Below are positions 28,031 through 38,049 of a stretch of 40,405 bases of DNA, piece after piece. The notes under the pieces were generated by a model. The model ran no database searches, was not told where the DNA came from, and saw only the letters and a program-made list of their open reading frames with translations. How positions within the stretch are numbered: position 1 is the first letter of the stretch; the number at the start of each line of letters is the position of its first letter. The position numbers were made by a program, and so were the translations under genes. Source of the stretch: Desulfobacca acetoxidans (GTDB lineage Bacteria; Desulfobacterota; Desulfobaccia; Desulfobaccales; 0-14-0-80-60-11); NCBI GenBank assembly GCA_020722205.1, contig DYLF01000017.1, positions 1 through 40,405 of the forward strand, written 5' to 3'.

Positions 28031-29029
28031 TCATTGGAGCAAGTTATTGGCCAGACTGAGAAGGGAGCGGTTCAGCTTCAGATTCAGGGTCTTGGCCGTT
28101 TTTAGATTCAGGGTTAATTTTTTCAAGCGCGGCTTTTCCGGCGGCACCAGACCTGGGGGGACGCCAGCCAGTATTCTGCCGGCCTGCCGACCGGCTTGCC
28201 GGCCGATGTCATAAAAGTCACAATGGTAGGCGAGAAGGGCGCCAAAGGGCACCAGGTCACCAGCCACCACCTGCACCGGGATACCGGCCTTGGCGGCCTC
28301 CCGGCAAATAATCTGTAAATTCTGAGGCAAATCCAGGATGGGGTCGGTGGGAGTAATCAGGACGTCAATCCGTTGGGCCAACAGAGGCGCCAGGCCCGCC
28401 GGCAAGTCTTTTAGCTGCTCCCCTGAAACGGTTTGGCTGAACACCTTTAACCCTAACAATTGCGCCGCCTCCTTCATTTCCCGCGCCGTGGCCACAGCCT
28501 GGGGGGTCTGAGGACAATAAAGGATCCCCAGCCTTTTTATTTTTGGCACGGCGAGACGCAACATCTGTAGTTGCTCCAGGGCCGGGACCTCCATGCTGAC
28601 CCCGGTGAAGTGGACGTCCTTTGCCAGTTCCAGTCTCTGCAAGCCGGTGGCTGCGGGCGCGCCGACAATGCTGTAAACTGTAGAGATATCCAGATCTTTA
28701 GTGGTCTGCAAGGCCGCCAAGGCCGGGATTGTGCCAAGACAGATCAATAGCCGCGCCCCGGCTTGCACCAGCTCCTGAGCAGCCAAAACGGCCCGCTCAG
28801 GTTGGTTAGCCACCGTAATGCCTTTGAGCCTGATGCTGAGGCCATCATGATAACCGGCCTCCTTAAGGCCATCGATAACTCCCTGGTAGGTCAGATTGTA
28901 GGCCTCCACCTCCGTTGACCCTTGAATAATCCCCACCAGCGGCAGAGAAAAGAACAGAGCATCCTGGCAAGCGCAGCCGCAGAGGCCCAGACAGAGAAAC
29001 AAGAACCTGATAATCCTGAGGCGCACCAT
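28031..29029 (-). CDS. ABC-type substrate-binding protein (TrpX/PF04392 type)
   Basis: 332 residues. The N-terminus MVRLRIIRFLFLCLGLCGC is a secretion signal, probably a lipoprotein signal with Cys 19 as the attachment site. The rest follows the PF04392 periplasmic-binding fold: PLVGIIQGSTEVEAYNLTYQGVIDGLKEAGY, AGARLLICLGTIPALAAL, FTGVSMEVPALEQLQMLRLAVPKIKRLGILY, RIDVLITPTDP and PVQVVAGDLVPFGALLAYHCDFYDIGRQAG. Relatives bind aromatic amino acids or unknown ligands. No permease or ATPase genes are adjacent; instead a sensor kinase follows. This suggests a sensory rather than transport role, which is inference. Confidence 0.85.
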   Translation of the reverse strand: MVRLRIIRFLFLCLGLCGCACQDALFFSLPLVGIIQGSTEVEAYNLTYQGVIDGLKEAGYHDGLSIRLKGITVANQPERAVLAAQELVQAGARLLICLGTIPALAALQTTKDLDISTVYSIVGAPAATGLQRLELAKDVHFTGVSMEVPALEQLQMLRLAVPKIKRLGILYCPQTPQAVATAREMKEAAQLLGLKVFSQTVSGEQLKDLPAGLAPLLAQRIDVLITPTDPILDLPQNLQIICREAAKAGIPVQVVAGDLVPFGALLAYHCDFYDIGRQAGRQAGRILAGVPPGLVPPEKPRLKKLTLNLKTAKTLNLKLNRSLLSLANNLLQ

Positions 29030-29363
29030 ATCCCAAGGTTAGGTCGTTTTGTCGGCAAGTATTTCTTGACACTTTATGTATCGGCTTCTCTTTCCGACAA
29101 CTTAACCTTCTTCTTCCGTTGACCTGGAAAATTATCAGTTTAGCTGCCCAAGGGCGGCGTTCCCAGCTTTGGCGCGGCCGCGGTTTTTCGGTTTAAACGA
29201 CAAAATTGAAGGGGTCATGGCAAGCGGTCGGTAAAAACGATTTATCCGATAAATCTCTTTGGCTCACCTGATGGTTGATAATAAAAAAATATTTTGAAAA
29301 AAAATTTGATTAGTAATTTATTTTTTTATAAGATAGGCCGACTTTAGGGAGGAAGGTTCATTC
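29030..29363. promoter_or_regulatory. 334-bp divergent control region with inverted repeats
   Basis: No gene. Inverted repeat TTGTCGGCAAG...CTTTCCGACAA (29049-29059 and 29090-29100, one mismatch) lies just upstream of the substrate-binding gene. A 17-bp palindrome GATTTATCCGATAAATC is at 29239-29255. Then a very AT-rich block (29279-29334) with TATAAG and a GGGAGGAAGG ribosome site leads into the RpiR gene. The palindrome is a plausible operator for that regulator. Confidence 0.45.
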
Positions 29364-30248
29364 ATGCCAGAAGTGTCAATGATCGCTCCGCACACTGAAG
29401 TGCCACCAAGCAGTGCGCTTATTCGTCTACGCGGTCTCTATTCTTCCCTGCGGGCGGCTCTGCAAAGAGTTGGGGACTTGATTTTGGCGCAGCCGGAGAT
29501 GGCCATTTATGCCTCGGTGAACGAGGTGGCAGCGGCAGCAGGGGTGAGTGAGGCGACGGTGATGCGGTTTTGCCGGACATTGGGGTTTCGGGGTTTTCAG
29601 GATTTCAAGATCGCCTTGGCGCGGGAGTTGGTGTCCCCCTTGCAGCGGTTGCACGAAGAGGTGGCGGAGGGCGATGATGCGGCGACCATTGTCCGCAAGG
29701 TTTTCCAGGCCAATATCAACGCCTTGCAGGACACCCTGGAGATTCTCAACCTGAAGGCGATGGAGGAGGCGGCCCATTGGATGTTGGCGGCGCGTCAGGT
29801 TTGGGTCATCGGGGTGGGCACCTCCGGGCCTATTGTGCGGGATGCGGGGAACAAATTTTTTCGCTTGGGGCTGGATGTGCACAGTCAGACGGATGCTCAC
29901 CTGATGATGATGCAGGCTGCGCTTCTCACCTGTGAAGACGTGATGCTGGCGGTGTCGCATTCCGGCAGCACCCGGGATCCGGTGGAGACCGCGAAGGTGG
30001 CCAAGGCTGCTGGGGCCAGGATTATCTGCATCACCAATAACTCCCTCTCACCACTCACCCGGGTGTCTGACTTGGTGTTGGTGACCGCCGCCCGGGAGAC
30101 CCGCTTTCGCCAGGAGGCCATGGCGGCCCGTCTCTGCCAGACCAGCATCATTGACAGCCTTTATACCCTGATGGCTTTGGCCCGCTCGGAGACGGCCCTG
30201 GAGAATCTGGCCAAAATCGAGAATGTCATTGTTGCTAAGCAGTATTAG
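29364..30248 (+). CDS. MurR/RpiR-family transcription regulator
   Basis: 294 residues. An N-terminal HTH_6 domain (about 20-95, with NEVAAAAGVSEATVMRFCRTLGFRGFQDFK as the recognition region) is joined to a C-terminal SIS sugar-isomerase domain (VWVIGVGTSGPIVRDAGNKFFRLGLDV, LAVSHSGSTRDPVETAKVAKAAGARIICITN). Such proteins sense sugar phosphates and repress or activate sugar-metabolism genes. A class II aldolase gene follows 102 bp downstream and is a likely target. GGGAGGAAGG precedes the ATG. Confidence 0.92.
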   Translation: MPEVSMIAPHTEVPPSSALIRLRGLYSSLRAALQRVGDLILAQPEMAIYASVNEVAAAAGVSEATVMRFCRTLGFRGFQDFKIALARELVSPLQRLHEEVAEGDDAATIVRKVFQANINALQDTLEILNLKAMEEAAHWMLAARQVWVIGVGTSGPIVRDAGNKFFRLGLDVHSQTDAHLMMMQAALLTCEDVMLAVSHSGSTRDPVETAKVAKAAGARIICITNNSLSPLTRVSDLVLVTAARETRFRQEAMAARLCQTSIIDSLYTLMALARSETALENLAKIENVIVAKQY

Positions 30249-30350
30249 ACGGGGAGAGGTGAGCTTTTGGCTGAAAGTTTTTAGTGAACCCCAATTCTTA
30301 AGTTGAGACTCGGAACCTGAGACGAAAGATTTTTGACTGCGGACATTGGA

Positions 30351-30998
30351 ATGCAGACGGAACGGCAAGTAAAGCAGTGGATTGTGCGAATCTGCCGGAT
30401 GCTGCACCAGAAGGATCTGATAGCCGCCACGGATGGTAACGTCAGCGTCAAGGTGGGAAACAAACTGCTCACCACCCCCAGCGGGGTAAATAAGGGATTT
30501 TTGGAAGAAAAGCAGATTATTACGGTGGACTTGGAAGGACGGCTGTTGGAGGGGACGGGCCAGCCCACTTCGGAGTTGGAGATGCATCTGCTGGTGTATC
30601 GCCTCCGACCGGAGGTGGGGGCGGTGGTGCATGCGCATCCGCCTCTGATCACCGGCTTTTCCATTGCCGGCGTTTCTCTGGAGGAGTTTATCCTGCCGGA
30701 GGTGGTCATGACCATGGGGGTGATTCCCACCGCTGCTTATGCCACCCCGGCCACCGGGGAGGTGGCGGAAGTTATCCGGGAGCTGATAAAGGGGTACGAC
30801 GCTTTGATCCTGGAGCGTCACGGGGCGGTGACGGTAGGGCTGGACCTGATGGAGGCTTACAACAAGATGGAGAAGCTCGAACACACCGCCCTGGTCATCC
30901 TGACGGCCTTGCAACTCGGCCGGGTGCGCCTGCTGCCCCCCCGGGAGGTGGAAAAGCTTATTCAGTTCCGGGTGGTCAAAGGACTGAAGCCCCCTTAG
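30351..30998 (+). CDS. Class II aldolase / fuculose-phosphate aldolase family
   Basis: 215 residues of the L-fuculose-1-phosphate aldolase / AraD family. The zinc ligands are visible: VVHAHPP (His 94, His 96) and LERHGAVTVG (His 157), with Glu 75 in QPTSELEMH as the catalytic acid/base position. GNVSVKVGNKLLTTPSG forms the phosphate site. The reaction would cleave a sugar phosphate to dihydroxyacetone phosphate and an aldehyde, or act on a related substrate such as methylthioribulose-phosphate; the exact substrate is not readable. The track starts 6 codons earlier at a TTG; ATG 30351 is preferred. It lies behind the RpiR regulator. Confidence 0.85.
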   Translation: MQTERQVKQWIVRICRMLHQKDLIAATDGNVSVKVGNKLLTTPSGVNKGFLEEKQIITVDLEGRLLEGTGQPTSELEMHLLVYRLRPEVGAVVHAHPPLITGFSIAGVSLEEFILPEVVMTMGVIPTAAYATPATGEVAEVIRELIKGYDALILERHGAVTVGLDLMEAYNKMEKLEHTALVILTALQLGRVRLLPPREVEKLIQFRVVKGLKPP

Positions 30999-31062
30999 AA
31001 GTGGGTTTTGGGTTTTTAGGTGTTGGGTATCGGCATTTTAATTACCTCCGTGAACTTACTCA

Positions 31063-32124
31063 ATGTCTGCAAATCTTCCGTCCCGCGTCCTGTTGGCTGC
31101 CTACTCCCCCTACCCTCCCCTGGCGGAAAGCCTGGCGGCCGCTTTGGGTCGCCTCGGCGTGGATAGCCGTATCTTTCATGCCTGGCTGTGCAACACCTGG
31201 TTCGATCGCCTGATCATCCACCCCCTCAACCATTATGCCCACAGCTTGCGTCTGACGCCAAAAGGGGTGACTCTTCTGGCCGGGCATCCCAAGTCCCACA
31301 AGGAGTGGCGCAGCCGGAAATTTTTGGAGTTGCAGCGACAGTATCAGCCGGACCTGGTGCTGCTCACCGGCATTTTGCGGTTCAAGCCGGAGGTCTTGCA
31401 GGTGCTTAACCAATCCGCTACGGTGTTTTACTGGTTTACGGAAGCGGAGCACCGCTTTTCAGAGGTGGTGCACGAGTTACCTTATTATCATCATGTCTTC
31501 TTTCTCTCTTCCCTGGGTCTTAAGCAGGCACGGGCTTTGGGTTACACCAAGGTGTCTCTTTTGCAGCATGCGGTGGACACCGGGGCCTTTCGCCCCCTAA
31601 AGCTTCCCCTCCTTCACGACTGGTGTTTTGTGGGTCAGTGGCATGAACGCCGCCAGCGATATGTGGCAGGCCTGGCTGAGGTATCTCGGCGGTTTGTCAT
31701 CTACGGCCCCCGCTGGCGCAAGCATAATCTGTGCAGGCCGGTTATATTTTCCCGCATTAAGGGGCAGGGTCTCTGGGGGGAAGATCTGATCAGGCTCTAC
31801 AATCAGACCCGGGTGGTCATCAACATTTCCGTTTGGGCTGATGAGGCTGGTGGAGGATGGGGGGTGAACCAGCGGCTGCTGGAGGCGCCGGCCTGCGGCG
31901 CTTGTCTGTTGAGCGATTACAACCGGGACGCCGAGCTTCTATTGACTCCCGGTCGGGACTTTATCAGCGCCAAGAGTCTGGCGGAGATGCAAGAGTGGCT
32001 GGCGGTTTTGTTGGCCGATGAGGCGAAACGCTCAGCAATTGCCCGCCAGGGATGCGAGCGGGCCTCCCGGCTGCGCAATTATGACGACCTGGTGGCGGAG
32101 GTCTTACAGCAGTACAGAAGCTGA
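31063..32124 (+). CDS. CgeB-like glycosyltransferase
   Basis: 353 residues. The sequence follows the spore-protein CgeB/Glyco_trans_1_2 type of GT-B protein: an N-terminal half with RVLLAAYSPYPPLAESLAAALGRLGVDSRIFHAW and DLVLLTGILRFKPEVLQ, VFYWFTEAEHRF, LGLKQARALGYTKVSLLQHAVD, WCFVGQWHERRQRYVAGL, then the C-terminal INISVWADEAGGGWGVNQRLLEAPACGACLLSDYNRDAELLL, which holds the donor-binding Glu. It presumably transfers a sugar to a surface or carbohydrate acceptor. It is 64 bp after the aldolase on the same strand and convergent with the binding-protein gene. Confidence 0.82.
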   Translation: MSANLPSRVLLAAYSPYPPLAESLAAALGRLGVDSRIFHAWLCNTWFDRLIIHPLNHYAHSLRLTPKGVTLLAGHPKSHKEWRSRKFLELQRQYQPDLVLLTGILRFKPEVLQVLNQSATVFYWFTEAEHRFSEVVHELPYYHHVFFLSSLGLKQARALGYTKVSLLQHAVDTGAFRPLKLPLLHDWCFVGQWHERRQRYVAGLAEVSRRFVIYGPRWRKHNLCRPVIFSRIKGQGLWGEDLIRLYNQTRVVINISVWADEAGGGWGVNQRLLEAPACGACLLSDYNRDAELLLTPGRDFISAKSLAEMQEWLAVLLADEAKRSAIARQGCERASRLRNYDDLVAEVLQQYRS

Positions 32125-32135
32125 CCCTCTTAGCA

Positions 32136-33695
32136 CTAGGGTGAAGCCGGATGCCAGTGGGGCAAGTTGTAGAAGATGCCAAGGGGGGAGGGGGAGATGC
32201 CTTTTAGGGTCGTTCTGGCCAGGAAGACGGCGTCGCAGTTGTAGAGGAAGACGCAGGGAGGATCCAGGACCATAATTTCCTGCACCTGTCGGTAAAAGGC
32301 GCGCCGTTGGCTTCTTTTCAGGGTGCGCCGGGCTTTTGCCAGTAAACAGTCCACCTCGGGATGATGGTAGTTCAGAAAGTTCCAGGCACCTTCCTTAGTC
32401 TGGGAAGAATGCCACAGCATATAGAGATCTGGGTCCCAGAGGAAATGGCGCTCCAACAGGACAAGGTCAAAATGGCGTTTATTTATGACGAGGTGCCGGA
32501 AGGTGAGCCAATCGAAGGTTCTGATCTTCAAAAGAATGCCTAGGGACTGCAAATTTTCTTGAATTATTTGGGCGGTGAGGAGGTTTTCTTTGCTTTCGTA
32601 ATTGGTGGCCAGGATAAGAGGGTTGCCCGATGCGACGGCACTGCCGGGGGTAAAGGCCTGCTTTTTGAGAATTTCCTTGGCCTTGGTAGGATTATAAGGA
32701 TAATCGGGGAGTTGGTCGTGGGAATACCAGGTCCCGGGGGGGAAGGGACTGTGGCCGGGACTGCCCAGGCCTTTGAATACCCCCTGGATAATAGCTGCCT
32801 TATTTATCGCCATACTGAAGGCCTGCCTGACTTGTCGGTTTCGGAACCCAGGGTGGAGGTGGTTGAAACCCAGGAATCCGTATCGGCTCGCGGTGGTGCG
32901 GAAAAGAGCAAATTCCGGCCATTTGTTGGGATGTCTTTTTAACTCATCGTATTGCGCAGGCGTCAACTCCATAACATCTACTTTGCCGGTCTTGAGTGCG
33001 AAAAAACGGGTGGTGGGGTCCGGAATTATTTTGATGATGAGCCTCTGAATCATGGGGGGGCCGAGAAAAAAGTCAGGAAAGGACTCCAGCACCAGCTGTT
33101 GGCCGGGAAGCCAATCTCGGAGGCGGTAGGGGCCGGTGCCGATGGGGCTCCGGTCATAGGCCGGATCGGTGACGGCTCGGTGCTGAAAGACATGCTGAGG
33201 TACAATTCCCACCGTCCAGCTCTCCAGGGCGGAGCCGAAGGGTTCGTCATAATCCACGACCACGGTGTAGCGGTCTCGAGCAGTTACCCGTCGCACCGGC
33301 CCGAACTGGCTTTTAAGGGGGGTGGGTATGTCCGGGGAGGTGATGGTACGGTAGGTAAAGACCACATCGTCGGCAGCGAATTCTTGGCCGTCGTGCCACT
33401 TCACCCCCCGCCGCAGAGAAAAGGTGAGACGATGGCCGTTCGGGGAGAACTGCCAGCTTTCGGCCAGCTCTCCGGCTATCCTTAAATCAGGCTGGATTTT
33501 GGTCAATCCATTAAAGAGCCAGCCGCTGATGGTAAAAGAGGTGTTGTCCGCAAGGAAGACGGGATTCAGAGCGGCTGGTTCGGCTGGAAAGGCCAATACC
33601 AGCTGATTCTGGTCCGGCGGTGAGGCGTCAGGGGCACCACATGCCACCACTACCAGAAATAAGCCAGCAGCAAAGAGAGTACTTTTAAAGGGCAA
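32136..33695 (-). CDS. Peptide/nickel-type ABC substrate-binding lipoprotein (family 5)
   Basis: 519 residues from a TTG at 33695. A lipoprotein signal LPFKSTLFAAGLFLVVVAC ends at a lipobox VVAC. The mature protein matches extracellular solute-binding family 5: LVLAFPAEPAALNPVFLADNTS, FNGLTKIQPDLRIAGELAESWQFSPNGHRLTFSLRRGVKWHDGQEFAADDVVFTY, GTGPYRLRDW, VRQAFSMAINKAAI. It would bind a peptide or metal-chelate in the periplasm. The ORF track joins it to an upstream receptor fragment, because no stop separates them. An ATG in another frame lies 8 nt upstream: with one more A, ATGAAGCGGTTG would give an ideal MKRLPFK start. This suggests a one-base loss or a sequencing error. No permease or ATPase genes follow. 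Confidence 0.8.
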   Translation of the reverse strand: MPFKSTLFAAGLFLVVVACGAPDASPPDQNQLVLAFPAEPAALNPVFLADNTSFTISGWLFNGLTKIQPDLRIAGELAESWQFSPNGHRLTFSLRRGVKWHDGQEFAADDVVFTYRTITSPDIPTPLKSQFGPVRRVTARDRYTVVVDYDEPFGSALESWTVGIVPQHVFQHRAVTDPAYDRSPIGTGPYRLRDWLPGQQLVLESFPDFFLGPPMIQRLIIKIIPDPTTRFFALKTGKVDVMELTPAQYDELKRHPNKWPEFALFRTTASRYGFLGFNHLHPGFRNRQVRQAFSMAINKAAIIQGVFKGLGSPGHSPFPPGTWYSHDQLPDYPYNPTKAKEILKKQAFTPGSAVASGNPLILATNYESKENLLTAQIIQENLQSLGILLKIRTFDWLTFRHLVINKRHFDLVLLERHFLWDPDLYMLWHSSQTKEGAWNFLNYHHPEVDCLLAKARRTLKRSQRRAFYRQVQEIMVLDPPCVFLYNCDAVFLARTTLKGISPSPLGIFYNLPHWHPASP

Positions 33696-34880
33696 CCGCT
33701 CATTCGGGAAAAGTTTGTCACCTTTGTCCTTGTATCTCTGATAATCCAGGCCGATGGTCAGGGTGTGGTTTCTCAGGGTGTGGCGGTAGCTCAGGTCGGT
33801 GCCGTAAGAGACATCGTCCCACCACTTCTTGTGGAAGATGCGGTTGCGAGCCACCCAGGTATTGAAGGCCTCCCGTTCACCCCAGTTTTTCCAGTAGCGC
33901 ACCTTTAATAAACCCTGGCGCAGAACTTCTTGTTCATATCCGACATCAAAGAGGATGCGGTCTCTTTGCCAATAACTACCTGGTTCCGGACGGCCTCGAA
34001 ATCCCATGCCACCATGCATGATATCCCCGTCATGGGGCGGGAAATTGGGTTTGGTGGGGCTATGGTAGAATGGCGAGGAATAATCCGGGGAATTGCGGTT
34101 GTTGACCAAGAAGCCTTTTTTGACCCTGATCAACTGGACATTGGTGAATAGTTTGCCGTGCCAAGAGAAGTTATAGGCGGCCATGGCGTTGAGATTTTTT
34201 ATCCGGAAGTTGCCGTTTCAGAGGTAACCGGCGCTTTCGGGAATCCCGCCGCTCAGGGCGTATTCAAAGGCTCCCGGCTTCCAGGCGTGGAAGAAGTTGG
34301 CGGTCTTGGTGCTATAACTGGCCACTGAACCTTGGACTTCAAATTTCGGTTTGGCGGTGCCTTTCTTGGTCACCAGATTGATGACTCCCCCTAAGGTGTT
34401 GCCGTAGCGGGGATCGCTGACCCCTTTGATCAACTCGATTTTTTCGATATTATTTAGGGGTATGGTGGTCCAATCTACGAAATAGCCTCCGGCCGTTCCC
34501 GGCGTGTGCAGAGGGCGGCCGTCGATGGTCACCAGTATCCGCCGAGCCCCGAACCCTCTCACCTTGATGGAGTCATCGTCCAGGGCGCCGCCTACTTCCT
34601 GCAACCTCTGGACATCCACCCCTGGCTGGCGTTTGAGGGCGCCGTCCAAGGTAGTGCCGATGCCCTGCAGGAGAATCTCCGGTTTGATCACAGTCATGTT
34701 AGGGGTTTCGATATTAGTCTGCAATTCCTCGGCCGAGACCTCTATCTCCTCCAACTGGAACAACTGTTCCGATTTTCCCTCTTTCGGAGCGTTTTCTTGG
34801 GCGGCGGCGCCGCGCTGGATACCGGTGAGGGTAAGCAAGAGAAAAACGAGGCCCAAAAACCTTAAAAGGGGAAGGGTCAT
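33696..34880 (-). pseudogene. TonB-dependent receptor, interrupted by a stop and truncated
   Basis: The first 220 residues are a normal receptor start: signal peptide (LLRFLGLVFLLLTLTGIQRGAAAQ), a TonB-box region, and the plug domain with VIKPEILLQGIGTTLDGALKRQPGVDVQ, DDDSIKVRGFGARRILVTIDGRPLHTP and LNNIEKIELIKGVSDPRYGNTLGGVINLVTKKG. In-frame TGA occurs at 34220-34218 (GGIPESAGYL*NGNFRIKNLN); related receptors commonly have Arg there, so CGA to TGA is likely. Reading on in the same frame gives about 170 more residues of early beta-barrel strands ending HTLRNHTLTIGLDYQRYKDKGD. The frame then runs into the lipoprotein signal of the next gene. Roughly 300 C-terminal barrel residues are missing, so no working receptor can be made. 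Confidence 0.9.
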
Positions 34881-34889
34881 TTTTGCCTC

Positions 34890-35600
34890 CTAGTGCCCGG
34901 ATATTGGCGACCACCAAAACAGGCCCACCAAGCTGCGGTTTTTCAGCCAGTAATGCCCATCTTGATGGACCAGTCTTGTTTTCAGAGTGTCTTTTTCAGC
35001 GGAACTTAGGATTCTGCCCTCTTGATGATGATGATGTTCCCAAAGCTCGTCCAGATGATGATAGGCAAAGGAGCTGTCAGTTTCCAGATACCGGCTCCAG
35101 GTTAAGCGGAAATTATGATAGTGGCGAGGCAAGTCAGCTGACAGGAAATCCAGCTCGGTGACCAGACAAACATGTTGGGGCTGCGCCTGAAAGGCTTTGG
35201 CCAAAGCCAGGTTTATCTCCAGAGAGGTCAGATGCAGGCTGTTGCAGGCCAGGATCAGATGCAAGTCCCTGGCTTGAGCCAGAGGTAACTCTTCCCAGGA
35301 AGAGGCTTCAATTCTGAGACCTGGGAGAAGCTGATGACCAGCGGCTTCGCGGAGCAAGGCCCGCATTCCTTGGGAGGGCTCCAAGGCGGTGACCTCACAG
35401 CCCTTCTGCCAGAGGGGCAAGGCCAGGACACCGCTGCCGGCGCCGATGTCCAAGACTCGCCAGCCCGGTGTGGTGCGGGCTGTAATCAGGGGGATAATGT
35501 CCTGATGATAATGACCATGCTCCAACCAGGTTTTTTGCCAGCGGGCTTGGGCGTTCCAATATTGAACCGTCTTTTTCCGGTGAGGTATTTTGCTCGGCAT
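34890..35600 (-). CDS. Class I SAM-dependent methyltransferase in the TonB locus
   Basis: About 236 residues from the ATG at 35600. SAM motif I is visible as WRVLDIGAGSGVLALPLWQKG, motif II as VTALEPSQGMRALLREAAG, and DLHLILACNSLHLTSLEINLALAKAF as the post-motif. The track start at 35651 is 17 codons upstream, but it lies inside a terminator hairpin; the ATG at 35600 just after the U-run is more likely, though no clear ribosome site precedes either. Methyltransferases of this kind occur beside TonB receptors and nickel/peptide transporters in related anaerobes, perhaps making or modifying a metallophore (family knowledge, weak). It stands 9 bp upstream of the broken receptor. Confidence 0.78.
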   Translation of the reverse strand: MPSKIPHRKKTVQYWNAQARWQKTWLEHGHYHQDIIPLITARTTPGWRVLDIGAGSGVLALPLWQKGCEVTALEPSQGMRALLREAAGHQLLPGLRIEASSWEELPLAQARDLHLILACNSLHLTSLEINLALAKAFQAQPQHVCLVTELDFLSADLPRHYHNFRLTWSRYLETDSSFAYHHLDELWEHHHHQEGRILSSAEKDTLKTRLVHQDGHYWLKNRSLVGLFWWSPISGH

Positions 35601-35605
35601 GTGCC

Positions 35606-35655
35606 AAAATAAAAAGGCCATGAAGTCCGCTGTCCGGCGGCAGACCTTCATGGCC
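35606..35655 (-). terminator. Intrinsic terminator in the methyltransferase leader
   Basis: Minus strand GGCCATGAAG...CTTCATGGCC, a perfect 10-bp outer stem (35616-35625 with 35646-35655) with further pairing inside, followed by TTTTTATTTT. It lies between promoter and the methyltransferase coding region, so it can only act as an attenuator. A leader segment can compete for its 3' arm (see the leader entry). Confidence 0.8.
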
Positions 35656-35787
35656 TAGATTATTGCAGAAATCGCCAGCAACACCGCCTTTCCGGCGGTG
35701 CCCTTCACGGCAGGCTAAGGGTGGCTACCATAAATCAGCGTTTTTGGCGCTGACCAAACCCGGGGTTCATTCCCGATCAGTTGGTGT
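35656..35787 (-). ncRNA. Structured 5' leader, candidate attenuator/riboswitch
   Basis: Minus-strand leader between a promoter and an intrinsic terminator. Hairpins seen: CAGCG-N7-CGCTG (35736-35752), CACCGCC-GGAAA-GGCGGTG (35682-35700) and a possible outer CTGATC...GGTCAG. The segment GCCGTGAAG (35711-35703) is complementary, with one G-U pair, to CTTCATGGC, the terminator's 3' arm (35625-35617), so it could form an antiterminator. I could not match it to the cobalamin, TPP, FMN, SAM, Moco, GEMM or manganese classes from memory. Whether it binds a ligand is unknown. Confidence 0.5.
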
Positions 35788-35817
35788 ATTTTATGACAAG
35801 GTGGCCAGTCTGATCAA
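35788..35817 (-). promoter_or_regulatory. Promoter of the methyltransferase-receptor-binding protein unit
   Basis: Minus strand TTGATC (35817-35812), 18-nt spacer, TAAAAT (35793-35788). It gives a leader of about 180 nt before the methyltransferase. It separates this unit from tonB, which ends about 100 bp upstream. Confidence 0.6.
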
Positions 35818-35920
35818 TAATTTTTTTCACGTCAAGAGTGATCAATCAACCCACCGATTTTTGTTGGCTTACGGTGGCAGGCGATGGTTAACTAGAGAGC
35901 GGCTAACAAAAGGAATTTTC

Positions 35921-36736
35921 TTAGCCCTCGGTGAGGCGGAAGGCCAAGGGCACTTCAATGGTCAGTTGGGACCTGGTCAGGCCGGTGGGAAAAGGTGGAA
36001 ACCGGCCGACTTTTTTCAGGGTCTCCAAGGCCGCCCGGTCCAGCAGGTTGTATCCTGAGGAGCGGGAGATGCCTGAGCCGTCCACTTGACCGGAAGCCGA
36101 GATAGTAAAGCGCAACATCACCACCCCTTGCTGGTGCTGGCGACGGGCCATGGGGGGGTAGTCCTTATGGGCTGCCAGGCGGCGATAAACTTCCCTCAGG
36201 TAGGCTTTCAGCGGGGAGCCGCCGCCGGTGCCGGCACCACTGCCGCCCCCGGCGCCGGAACCTGAGCCACGCCCGACCCCCGAGCCGCCGCCGGCACCAC
36301 TACCCTGTCCGGCCCGACCGGATGTGCTCTCCGACCGCAAAGCAGCCGTGGGGGGACTGGTGCGTACGGCGGCGGTTTGAATGGCGGGAGCGCTGGTGGG
36401 TTCCGGCAGCAGAGGGCGGGGCGCCAGGCGCGGCGGGGGCGGTTTCTTGGCCCGGGGCTTTGCCTTCTTGGGAGGCGGTGAGGGGGGCGCATTTTCAGGC
36501 TTTTTGAGAGCGCCGGAACCGCCGCTCTTACCTGGCAGGCCCGCTCTAAAGTCCGCCAGCGTTACGGCCTCCACCGGTACCACCCTTTTGACCGGCGAGG
36601 ATGGAATCTGAAGATGCAAGGCGGTTCCGATAATCAGACCGTGCAGGAGCAGGGAGCCCAGGATCGACCAGAACCAGTTTTGAAAGTCGCGAGATAACCA
36701 AGGCATAAGACAAGATATTCTTGCAAAACTCGTCAT
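35921..36736 (-). CDS. tonB: TonB energy-transducing protein with Gly/Ser-rich linker
   Basis: 271 residues. A membrane anchor (about 18-42, WFWSILGSLLLHGLIIGTALHL) is followed by a basic/Pro-rich part (PPSPPPKKAKPRAKKPPPPRLAPRPLLPEP). An unusual Gly/Ser-rich segment of repeated GSGAGGGSGVGRGSGSG-type units comes next, then the C-terminal domain with YREVY-like RRLAAHKDYPPMARRQHQQGVVMLRFTISASGQVDGSGISRSSGYNLLDRAALETLKKVGRFPPFP. TonB transmits the energy of the ExbB/ExbD motor across the periplasm to outer-membrane receptors. The gene is 41 bp downstream of exbD. The start is not certain: ATG 36736 or the ATG 10 codons later, neither with a strong ribosome site. Only one receptor, a broken one, lies in the window, so it must serve others if it is active. 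Confidence 0.9.
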   Translation of the reverse strand: MTSFARISCLMPWLSRDFQNWFWSILGSLLLHGLIIGTALHLQIPSSPVKRVVPVEAVTLADFRAGLPGKSGGSGALKKPENAPPSPPPKKAKPRAKKPPPPRLAPRPLLPEPTSAPAIQTAAVRTSPPTAALRSESTSGRAGQGSGAGGGSGVGRGSGSGAGGGSGAGTGGGSPLKAYLREVYRRLAAHKDYPPMARRQHQQGVVMLRFTISASGQVDGSGISRSSGYNLLDRAALETLKKVGRFPPFPTGLTRSQLTIEVPLAFRLTEG

Positions 36737-36777: not shown

Positions 36778-37173
36778 TTATTGTTGTTCCACTTCGATGC
36801 CGATGCGCTGCACTTTCATCGTCCGCAGGCGATCTATGATCTCAATGAGGCGGCCGTGTCGGACTTCCCGATCGGCGGCTATGACGGCCTGGGCCTCAGG
36901 ATTTTGGCGTTGTTCTTGAAAGAGGCGGTCAAAATCAGCGTCCTGGGCCAGCTTGACGCCGTTGATGGCCACGGCCCCCTCGCGGTCAATGCTGATGATG
37001 ATGGGCGTGTTTTCGAGCTTGTCGGCCTGCACCGCCTTGGGCAAGGCGATGGCAAACATTCGGGGCAGCATGACGGTGGCGGATATGAGAAAGATGATCA
37101 GAATGACCAGGACAATGTCCACAAAGGGGGTCATGTTGATTTCAGTGATCGGCCCGGGGGTGTGAGATTTCAT
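36778..37173 (-). CDS. exbD: ExbD/TolR-family biopolymer transport protein
   Basis: 131 residues. One N-terminal membrane helix with the proton-carrying Asp in the family motif TEINMTPFVDIVLVILIIFLI, followed by a periplasmic domain (PIIISIDREGAVAINGVKLAQDADFDRLFQEQ, VIAADREVRHGRLIEIIDRLRTMKVQRIGI). With ExbB it forms the inner-membrane motor that energises TonB. It sits between exbB and tonB in the order exbB-exbD-tonB, 124 bp after exbB. Confidence 0.93.
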   Translation of the reverse strand: MKSHTPGPITEINMTPFVDIVLVILIIFLISATVMLPRMFAIALPKAVQADKLENTPIIISIDREGAVAINGVKLAQDADFDRLFQEQRQNPEAQAVIAADREVRHGRLIEIIDRLRTMKVQRIGIEVEQQ

Positions 37174-37297: not shown

Positions 37298-37918
37298 TCA
37301 CTTTGACAGGTGGGCCAGCAGCATCTGGCCCAGGCGCTGGGAGCGTTCCAGCACCACCTGGACCCGGCTTAAAAAAAAATTATAAGCCACCACAGCCGGG
37401 ATGGCTACAAACAATCCCACTGCGGTAGCCACCAGGGCTTCTGCGATGCCGGCCATGACCATGGGGCCGCCACAGGAGTCGGTAACAGCCAAGGCCTTGA
37501 AGGAGTGGATGATGCCCACCACGGTGCCGAACAGGCCGATGAAGGGGGCGTTGGCCCCCAGGGTGCCCAGGAAATTCAAGCGTTTTTTGAGGAACAGGCC
37601 CACACGCAGGCGCTCTCCCTCCATGGCTTCCTGGACTGCGGCCTTGCCGAGGTGGGCATGTTTCAGTCCGGCCAAAAATACCTGGGCCTCGAGAGCCGTA
37701 TCTGTTTCACAGCGAGACATGAGGCGGTTCCAGGCCCCTTGCTGGAGGAGGGGTTCAATCTCAGCAATAAATCGGTCTTCGGCAAACCGGTGCCGGTAAA
37801 GCACCAGCCCCCGATTAATAATCACCGCCACTGAGGCCACGCTCAGGAACAACAAGAGCCAAAGCACCCAGGTGCTGCCGCCGATGGCCAGATTCATGAG
37901 GGCCTTAATCAGTTCCAC
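37298..37918 (-). CDS. exbB: ExbB/TolQ-family motor protein
   Basis: 206 residues, three membrane helices (about 15-37, 115-140, 155-180). Family blocks: STWVLWLLLFLSVASVAVIINRG, then LNFLGTLGANAPFIGLFGTVVGIIHSF, and GIAEALVATAVGLFVAIPAVVAYNFF. ExbB forms the pentameric proton channel with ExbD. A GTG at 37918 follows GGAGATGACGG. The gene is first in the operon, behind a leader with a hairpin and a promoter that carries a palindrome. Confidence 0.94.
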   Translation of the reverse strand: MELIKALMNLAIGGSTWVLWLLLFLSVASVAVIINRGLVLYRHRFAEDRFIAEIEPLLQQGAWNRLMSRCETDTALEAQVFLAGLKHAHLGKAAVQEAMEGERLRVGLFLKKRLNFLGTLGANAPFIGLFGTVVGIIHSFKALAVTDSCGGPMVMAGIAEALVATAVGLFVAIPAVVAYNFFLSRVQVVLERSQRLGQMLLAHLSK

Positions 37919-37930
37919 CCGTCATCTCCG

Positions 37931-37988
37931 TAAATTAATAAAGCCATGACAGTTCATCCGCCTTCAGGGGGATGACACCTTCATGGCT
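37931..37988 (-). terminator. Terminator-like hairpin in the exbB leader
   Basis: Minus strand AGCCATGA...TCATGGCT (37981-37988 with 37942-37949) encloses TCATCC...GGATGA, and is followed by TTTATTAATTT. Its 5' arm begins GCCATGAAGG, the same ten bases as the hairpin before the methyltransferase unit. Being upstream of exbB it can only work as an attenuator or processing signal. The U-tract is imperfect. Confidence 0.5.
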
Positions 37989-38049
37989 CTGATTCCAAAT
38001 TCTTGCAAGGGGACCATCTCAGGGAGTCCAATCTCCCTGGTTGCAAATT
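37989..38049 (-). other. exbB 5' leader with nested hairpins
   Basis: Minus strand TTGCAA...TTGCAA (outer stem) enclosing CAGGGAG-ATTGGA-CTCCCTG (strong 7-bp stem), then the GGAATCAGAGCC run into the terminator-like hairpin. No ligand class recognised. The CTGAGA hexamer it contains is not accompanied by the remaining thi-box elements. Confidence 0.4.

What the first reader, a model, noticed from the sequence alone, without database searches (positions are those of the whole stretch)
35606..35817. Candidate riboswitch or attenuator before the methyltransferase/receptor/binding-protein unit
On the minus strand a promoter (TTGATC-N18-TAAAAT) is followed by about 130 nt of structured leader and a textbook terminator (10-bp outer stem plus TTTTTATTTT) lying before the coding region. 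The leader segment GCCGTGAAG (35703-35711) can pair over 9 bp with CTTCATGGC, the 3' arm of the terminator (35617-35625). Mutually exclusive terminator and antiterminator is the hallmark of an attenuation switch. I do not recognise a known ligand class. The genes it controls point to uptake of a metal chelate or small peptide-like compound.
Basis: partly seen in the sequence, partly recalled or inferred. Interest (0 to 1): 0.78.

Follow-up and report, generated by a model that had tools for sequence, protein, structure and literature searches.

The report
Dual-hairpin switch for nickel-uptake genes
The stretch is one copy of an apparently undescribed RNA on/off switch that sits before nickel- and cobalt-uptake genes in many oxygen-avoiding bacteria and travels with two little-known protein genes that may work it, so it could explain how these microbes control nickel uptake.

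Summary
The proposed antiterminator pairing is not conserved. What is conserved is a two-hairpin attenuator. P1 has a stem of any sequence and a 4-6 nt loop ending GAA. P2 (RCC-AYGAA-GGY) is built into the 5' arm of an intrinsic terminator. The window holds a second copy before exbB, and the genome a third before cbiM. The element occurs in 90 of 395 genomes of the phylum and 22 of 293 Clostridia, and in Nitrospirota and Spirochaetia. It precedes CbiM, TonB/ExbB/receptor, NikA-like, DUF4198, FmdE and ECF genes. Rfam has no match, and ANTAR proteins are absent from the host. In Clostridia all 22 element-bearing genomes encode DUF3842 (base rate 105/293, p=3e-11). DUF3842 often lies beside the element, commonly followed by CooT, a nickel-binding CODH accessory protein; at several loci the element precedes a DUF3842-CooT operon. 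Best reading: a nickel/cobalt-responsive transcription attenuator whose trans-factor is probably DUF3842 with or without CooT; a direct metal riboswitch is the main rival. The RNA element and its regulon are well supported. Ligand, direction and protein link are inferred.

The parts
35788..35817 (-). Promoter: -35 TTGATC, 18-nt spacer, -10 TAAAAT, just upstream of P1
   Evidence: a TTGAC[A/T/G] -35 box precedes P1 in all six relatives shown and in both other copies of this genome
35761..35775 (-). P1 hairpin CGGG-AATGAA-CCCCG (loop ends GAA; short stem with a bulge)
   Evidence: sequence; GAA-loop hairpins enriched at this place in the family
35736..35752 (-). Accessory hairpin CAGCG...CGCTG, not seen in relatives
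   Evidence: fold
35699..35712 (-).
   Evidence: pairing with the 3' arm not conserved
35682..35700 (-). Accessory hairpin CACCGCC-GGAAA-GGCGGTG
   Evidence: fold
35644..35654 (-). P2 hairpin GCC-ATGAA-GGT, embedded in the 5' arm of the terminator
   Evidence: its 5' arm is nearly invariant while its 3' partner varies
35606..35655 (-). Intrinsic terminator stem and U-tract (TTTTTATTTT 35615-35606)
   Evidence: covariance model R1 hit 35606-35660, 51.5 bits
34890..35600 (-). SAM-dependent methyltransferase controlled by this copy; probable start ATG 35600
   Evidence: Pfam Methyltransf_25/11; relatives with the same leader
37932..37993 (-). Second copy: P2-terminator before exbB
   Evidence: R1 hit 46.7 bits; sequence
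38021..38038 (-). P1 of the second copy, AGGGAG-ATTGGA-CTCCCT; its loop ends GGA, not GAA; promoter TTGACA at 38078-38073
37298..37918 (-). exbB, first gene of exbB-exbD-tonB, target of the second copy
   Evidence: Pfam MotA_ExbB
36778..37173 (-). exbD
35921..36736 (-). tonB
34218..34880 (-). TonB-dependent receptor, plug domain (ORF interrupted)
32136..34184 (-). ORF joining part of a receptor barrel to a family-5 (NikA/DppA-like) binding protein

Best explanation
The leader is one copy of a widespread dual-hairpin transcription attenuator controlling a nickel/cobalt-uptake regulon in anaerobes. SHOWN by sequence comparison: hairpin P1 (GAA-ending loop), a linker, then hairpin P2 (RCC-AYGAA-GGY) whose bases also form the 5' arm of an intrinsic terminator; P2 and the terminator cannot coexist. 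The element precedes Ni/Co-uptake genes across several phyla and co-occurs and co-locates with DUF3842 and, often, CooT. INFERRED: a trans-acting factor, most likely DUF3842 helped by the Ni-binding protein CooT where present, recognises the GAA loops of P1 and P2 while the RNA is being made. When nickel (or cobalt) is scarce it holds P2 in hairpin form, so the terminator cannot form and the uptake genes are read. When the metal is plentiful the factor lets go, the terminator folds and transcription stops just before the gene. At several loci the element precedes DUF3842-CooT itself, so the system probably also regulates its own level.
For: Conservation: 17 of 29 genomes of the order, control pattern 1 match; 90 of 395 genomes of the phylum, 65 of 251 genera; 22 of 293 Clostridia; Nitrospirota and Spirochaetia loci. 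P1: GAA-ending hairpins of >=5 bp in 28 of 52 leaders, next loop end 10, distal control 3 of 48; >=6 bp 23 of 52 against 0 of 48; 57 of 105 in the larger set, next 18, with 46 distinct stems and all pair types at every position. Terminator: compensatory UA-CG change in 34 of 85 sequences and GC-AU in 2; the 5' arm nearly invariant while its 3' partners go to wobble. Regulon: 24 genes after T-tailed hits include CbiM, SBP_bac_5, TonB receptors, TonB, ExbB, FmdE, CobN; none of these appears among the families listed for 71 genes after T-less matches of the same pattern; 58 phylum targets: receptors 15, CbiM 11, DUF4198 5, ExbB 5, FmdE 3. Trans-factor: DUF3842 in 41 of 44 element-bearing genomes and 22 of 22 in Clostridia, base 105/293, p = 3.3e-11; within 2.5 kb of the element in 5 cases, 0.05 expected; CooT in 80 of 90 element-bearing phylum genomes against 150 of 305 others, p = 1.2e-12, and 45 of 46 of the strongest; 19 element-CooT pairs within 5.5 kb, about 0.5 expected, 17 on the same strand. 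Element directly before DUF3842-CooT in L328, L329, L330. CooT binds Ni with Kd 9 nM per dimer, and cooT mutants of R. rubrum do not grow on CO unless nickel is added (PMC6006190).
Against: No expression, binding or metal-response data. DUF3842 is predicted as a Rossmann-like fold and CooT matches only CooT structures, so neither looks like a known RNA-binding protein. 15 of 22 element-bearing Clostridia lack CooT, so CooT cannot be the universal factor. Three element-bearing genomes lack DUF3842 (all fragmentary or metagenomic). Both proteins may co-occur simply because nickel users need them. P1 is not found by the strict criterion in about 45% of leaders, and P1-P2 spacing varies from 0 to 103 nt. 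Genomes are related, so the p-values are too small. The base rate of DUF3842 in the window's own phylum was not measured.
Confidence: 0.6

Rival explanations
1. A direct metal riboswitch: the tandem GAA-loop hairpins themselves bind Ni2+/Co2+ (or a metal chelate) and set the terminator/hairpin balance, with DUF3842 and CooT merely being regulon members.
For: Regulon is Ni/Co uptake; small tandem hairpins are enough for other ligands (guanidine-II riboswitch, own knowledge); the element occurs without CooT in Clostridia and without detected DUF3842 in 3 fragmentary genomes.
Against: No sizeable conserved aptamer core beyond the two loops; P1-P2 spacing 0-103 nt; DUF3842 in 22 of 22 element-bearing Clostridia and the repeated DUF3842 adjacency need another explanation.
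Confidence: 0.22
2. An ANTAR-type dual-hairpin antitermination target.
For: Same logic: two small hairpins, the second overlapping the terminator; the hexaloop form of P1 fits A1/G4 (8 of 57; PMC3369931, PMC8934654).
Against: ANTAR (PF03861) absent from the host and from 28 of 29 genomes of the order and from 12 of 20 element-bearing genomes elsewhere; P2 loop is always five bases; spacing far wider than the 5-12 nt of eut.
Confidence: 0.04
3. One reading: GCCGTGAAG pairs with the terminator 3' arm, ligand unknown.
For: 9-bp pairing is real; a fold with P2 forced uses it (-67.9 against -74.5 kcal/mol); where P1 equals P2 in sequence (Clostridia, Nitrospirota, Spirochaetia) P1 could also pair with the 3' arm over 10 nt.
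Against: Only 6-7 nt in the close relatives, as in control stretches.
Confidence: 0.06
4. Ordinary unregulated terminators (end of upstream operon) that share sequence by chance or as mobile repeats.
For: Copies lie between genes; some are near-symmetric and could terminate both ways.
Against: Conserved 5' arm across phyla, P1, promoter directly upstream, and the Ni/Co gene association absent from T-less matches.
Confidence: 0.05

Closest known systems
ANTAR dual-hexaloop antitermination elements (EutV/eut, NasR/nas, AmiR/ami)
   Same: Two successive small hairpins, the second sharing bases with the 5' arm of an intrinsic terminator; loops A-rich with a G near the middle; several copies per regulon
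   Different: Loops of 4-6 nt ending GAA with an invariant pentaloop in P2; spacing 0-103 nt; no ANTAR protein in the host; Ni/Co-uptake regulon; linked to DUF3842 and CooT
NiCo (czcD) riboswitch
   Same: Ni/Co-related gene control by a leader RNA
   Different: No Rfam match here; NiCo is a four-way junction mostly before efflux genes (own knowledge), this one precedes uptake genes
Guanidine-II (mini-ykkC) riboswitch
   Same: Two small hairpins with like loops (own knowledge)
   Different: Other loop sequence (ACGR), other regulon, no Rfam match
NikR repressor of nickel uptake in delta-proteobacteria
   Same: Controls nikMQO-type nickel uptake operons (PMC545781)
   Different: DNA-binding repressor with a GTGTTAC inverted repeat; here an RNA terminator element
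CooT, CODH accessory protein (PF10133; PDB 6fan, 5n76)
   Same: Host CooT belongs to this family
   Different: Known only as a nickel-binding maturation factor of unclear action; no link to RNA regulation in the papers read

Membership tests
ANTAR target RNA | Second hairpin overlaps the 5' arm of an intrinsic terminator | tested here: met
ANTAR target RNA | Both loops are hexaloops with A at 1 and G at 4 | tested here: not met
   P2 pentaloop throughout; P1 loops 5 nt (28), 4 nt (18), 6 nt (11), AnnGnn in 8 of 57
ANTAR target RNA | Short linker (5-12 nt in eut) | tested here: not met
   median 37, range 0-103 nt (PMC3369931)
ANTAR target RNA | ANTAR protein encoded in the genome | tested here: not met
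   PF03861 absent from G000 and 28 of 29 genomes of the order, absent from 12 of 20 others
Any Rfam 15 family, including NiCo | Match to the covariance model | tested here: not met
   0 matches at gathering score in the window and in ten related loci; only chance-level matches in the relaxed search
Riboswitch | Direct binding of a ligand by the naked RNA | not testable with these tools
   needs in-line probing or binding assays
Transcription attenuator | Intrinsic terminator before the gene, mutually exclusive with a conserved alternative structure | tested here: met
   (structure predicted and conserved, switching not measured)
Ni/Co uptake regulon | Downstream genes are Ni/Co uptake genes | tested here: met
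   CbiM, ExbB, TonB, receptors, SBP_bac_5, DUF4198; substrate specificity of most is inferred
CooT family | Match to PF10133 above cut-off | tested here: met
   host protein 83.9 bits; PDB 6fan E 8e-12

The most novel reading that the evidence does not exclude
A protein-driven, nickel-responsive antitermination system: DUF3842 (no function known), with the nickel-binding CooT where present, reads tandem GAA-loop hairpins to switch on Ni/Co uptake in anaerobes of several phyla. This would give a first function to DUF3842, recast CooT from CODH chaperone to regulator or co-regulator, and provide an RNA-level nickel sensor outside NikR.
Probability: 0.45. Interest if true: 0.92.

Novelty: new variant of a known kind. 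Interest (0 to 1): 0.82.

Why it matters
A 2009 survey found NikR in fewer than half of the organisms with NikABCDE and inferred unknown, NikR-independent control (PMC2667541), and the action of CooT has remained unclear (PMC6006190). This element offers one testable answer to both: an RNA switch in sulfate reducers, acetogens and other anaerobes that depend on nickel for CODH and hydrogenase, with two named candidate proteins. It would also add a second dual-hairpin antitermination family beside ANTAR, and it labels many unassigned genes (methyltransferase, DUF4198, FmdE, CobN-like, ECF S components, receptors) as likely nickel/cobalt-uptake genes.

Tried and rejected
Rfam at gathering score and at relaxed E-values: only chance-level snR39 and DGCR5 matches. 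ANTAR as trans-factor: rejected. CooT alone as trans-factor: weakened by CooT-less Clostridia that carry the element. Fold comparison: CooT resembles only CooT; DUF3842 gives weak Rossmann/FtsZ-like matches, no RNA-binding fold. Plus-strand coding (ORF 35663-36058): the opposite-strand element is RNA-conserved across phyla and that reading has no support; its translation was inspected only. Literature: no paper in the held library mentions DUF3842, and searches for a Ni/Co dual-hairpin attenuator found none; only open-access papers are held.

Full report
CHECK OF THE OBSERVATION. The leader folds better than its shuffles (z = -3.0). Rfam 15 has no match in the window; relaxed searching of the leader gives only chance matches.

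THE CONSERVED ELEMENT. Six genomes of the same order have homologues of the methyltransferase at 40-53% identity, and each has a like leader. The pattern GCCATGAAGG-N6-30-TTCATGG is in 17 of 29 genomes of the order, against one match for the reversed control. The window itself holds a second copy before exbB (37932-37993), and the genome a third before a cbiM operon (contig C143). That cbiM operon also encodes CbiQ and a DUF4198 protein, and beside it lies a CooC-like ATPase (the CooC name is my reading of a CbiA/NifH-type domain).

P1 IS REAL. Because stems differ, P1 was tested by its loop: all hairpins with 4-6 nt loops in the 130 nt upstream of P2 were listed and sorted by the last three loop bases. 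GAA leads (28 of 52 leaders with >=5 bp; next AAA 10; GAA in upstream control stretches 3 of 48; with >=6 bp 23 of 52 against 0 of 48). In 105 leaders GAA leads 57 to 18; 46 of 57 stems are distinct and every stem position shows all Watson-Crick pair types. The stems were selected for pairing, so the evidence is the loop bias, not the pairing. About 45% of leaders show no P1 by this strict rule; the window's own P1 falls outside it because its stem is 3-4 bp with a bulge, and the P1 of the exbB copy has a loop ending GGA.

P2 AND TERMINATOR. In 85 aligned copies the 10-bp terminator stem is 97% paired. U-A changes to C-G in 34 sequences and G-C to A-U in 2. At the pairs nearest the apex the 5' arm keeps G while the partner is C or U. 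That asymmetry is expected if the 5' arm must also form P2 (RCC-AYGAA-GGY). P2 and the terminator share bases and exclude each other. Forcing P2 costs about 6.6 kcal/mol in the window leader, so something must stabilise it.

THE REGULON. Matches followed by a T-run precede CbiM, family-5 binding proteins, TonB receptors, TonB, ExbB, FmdE, CobN, an ECF ATPase and the same methyltransferase family; none of these is among the families listed for matches without a T-run (the control list shows 25 of 57 families). NikA profiles rank high for the binding proteins but below their cut-offs. A covariance model found the element in 90 of 395 genomes of the phylum and 22 of 293 Clostridia. 58 further phylum targets: TonB receptors 15, CbiM 11, OprB porins 6, DUF4198 5, ExbB 5, FmdE 3, FecCD 2, methyltransferases 2. 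In Clostridia an ECF S component of about 180 aa recurs. The common thread is nickel/cobalt uptake; iron, molybdenum or corrinoids cannot be excluded for single genes.

TRANS-FACTOR. ANTAR proteins are absent from the host and nearly all of its order. One element locus (L124) led to CooT, a nickel-binding CODH accessory protein. In the phylum sample CooT is in 80 of 90 element-bearing and 150 of 305 other genomes (p = 1.2e-12), and in 45 of 46 of those with the strongest elements; 19 element-CooT pairs lie within 5.5 kb where about 0.5 are expected (the lists were truncated and relatedness is not corrected). But most element-bearing Clostridia lack CooT (7 of 22 have it). DUF3842, usually encoded just before CooT, fits better: 41 of 44 element-bearing genomes and 22 of 22 in Clostridia against 105 of 293 overall (p = 3.3e-11). 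It lies within 2.5 kb of the element in 5 clostridial cases (0.05 expected), and beside it in L097 and L110. In L328, L329 and L330 the element directly precedes DUF3842-CooT with overlapping reading frames, which looks like self-control. The host has DUF3842-CooT on contig C51. No held paper mentions DUF3842 and no structure is known. Models: CooT matches CooT crystal structures; DUF3842 looks like a nucleotide-binding Rossmann-type fold.

MECHANISM. Low metal: factor bound to the GAA loops, P2 kept, terminator prevented, genes on. High metal: factor released, terminator forms, genes off. The direction is inferred from the logic of uptake genes and from the nickel-dependent growth of cooT mutants in R. 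rubrum (PMC6006190). A direct metal riboswitch remains the chief rival.

COMPARISON AND NOVELTY. The element works like the ANTAR dual-hexaloop system (PMC3369931, PMC8934654) but fails its defining tests: hexaloops, short linker, ANTAR protein. It is not in Rfam. I rate it a new variant of a known kind (dual-hairpin attenuators), with an unusual regulon and unassigned protein partners.

LIMITS. All evidence is comparative. E-values from the short-calibrated models are rough. Co-occurrence may partly reflect a shared anaerobic, nickel-using life style.

Noticed in passing
window 32136-34880 (-): The TonB receptor after the methyltransferase is broken: a 220-aa plug ORF, then an ORF that joins about 170 residues of receptor barrel to a complete family-5 binding protein. 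This looks like a deletion or assembly join plus a frame change.
   Followed up: partly
L038, L050, L124: Small proteins (LLxHWIEHN or MDELEKLK type) are encoded near the element in Thermovorax and Nitrospirota; the L038 one has no Pfam family.
   Followed up: partly
L110, L290, L302, L304, L311-L314, L318-L319: An ECF S-component family of about 180 aa (LPMHIPVLLxGF) with unknown substrate is a recurrent target of the element in gut Clostridia, often followed by a kinase-like or 360-aa unknown protein.
   Followed up: partly
L059 (Carboxydocella), L097, L147, L235: CobN-like chelatase and FmdE-domain proteins follow the element, suggesting a role in metal or tetrapyrrole handling.
   Followed up: no
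window 34890-35600; L099; L195; L202; L316; L317: Class I methyltransferases stand next to receptor or binding-protein genes under the element in several phyla; possibly they make or modify a metallophore.
   Followed up: no
L193, L202, L232: Two or three elements lie in tandem or on both strands between divergent genes, so one intergenic region can hold several attenuators.
   Followed up: no
window 28031-32124: An ABC substrate-binding lipoprotein (PF04392) and a glycosyltransferase-like gene lie downstream of the unit on opposite strands; no element seen before them.
   Followed up: no
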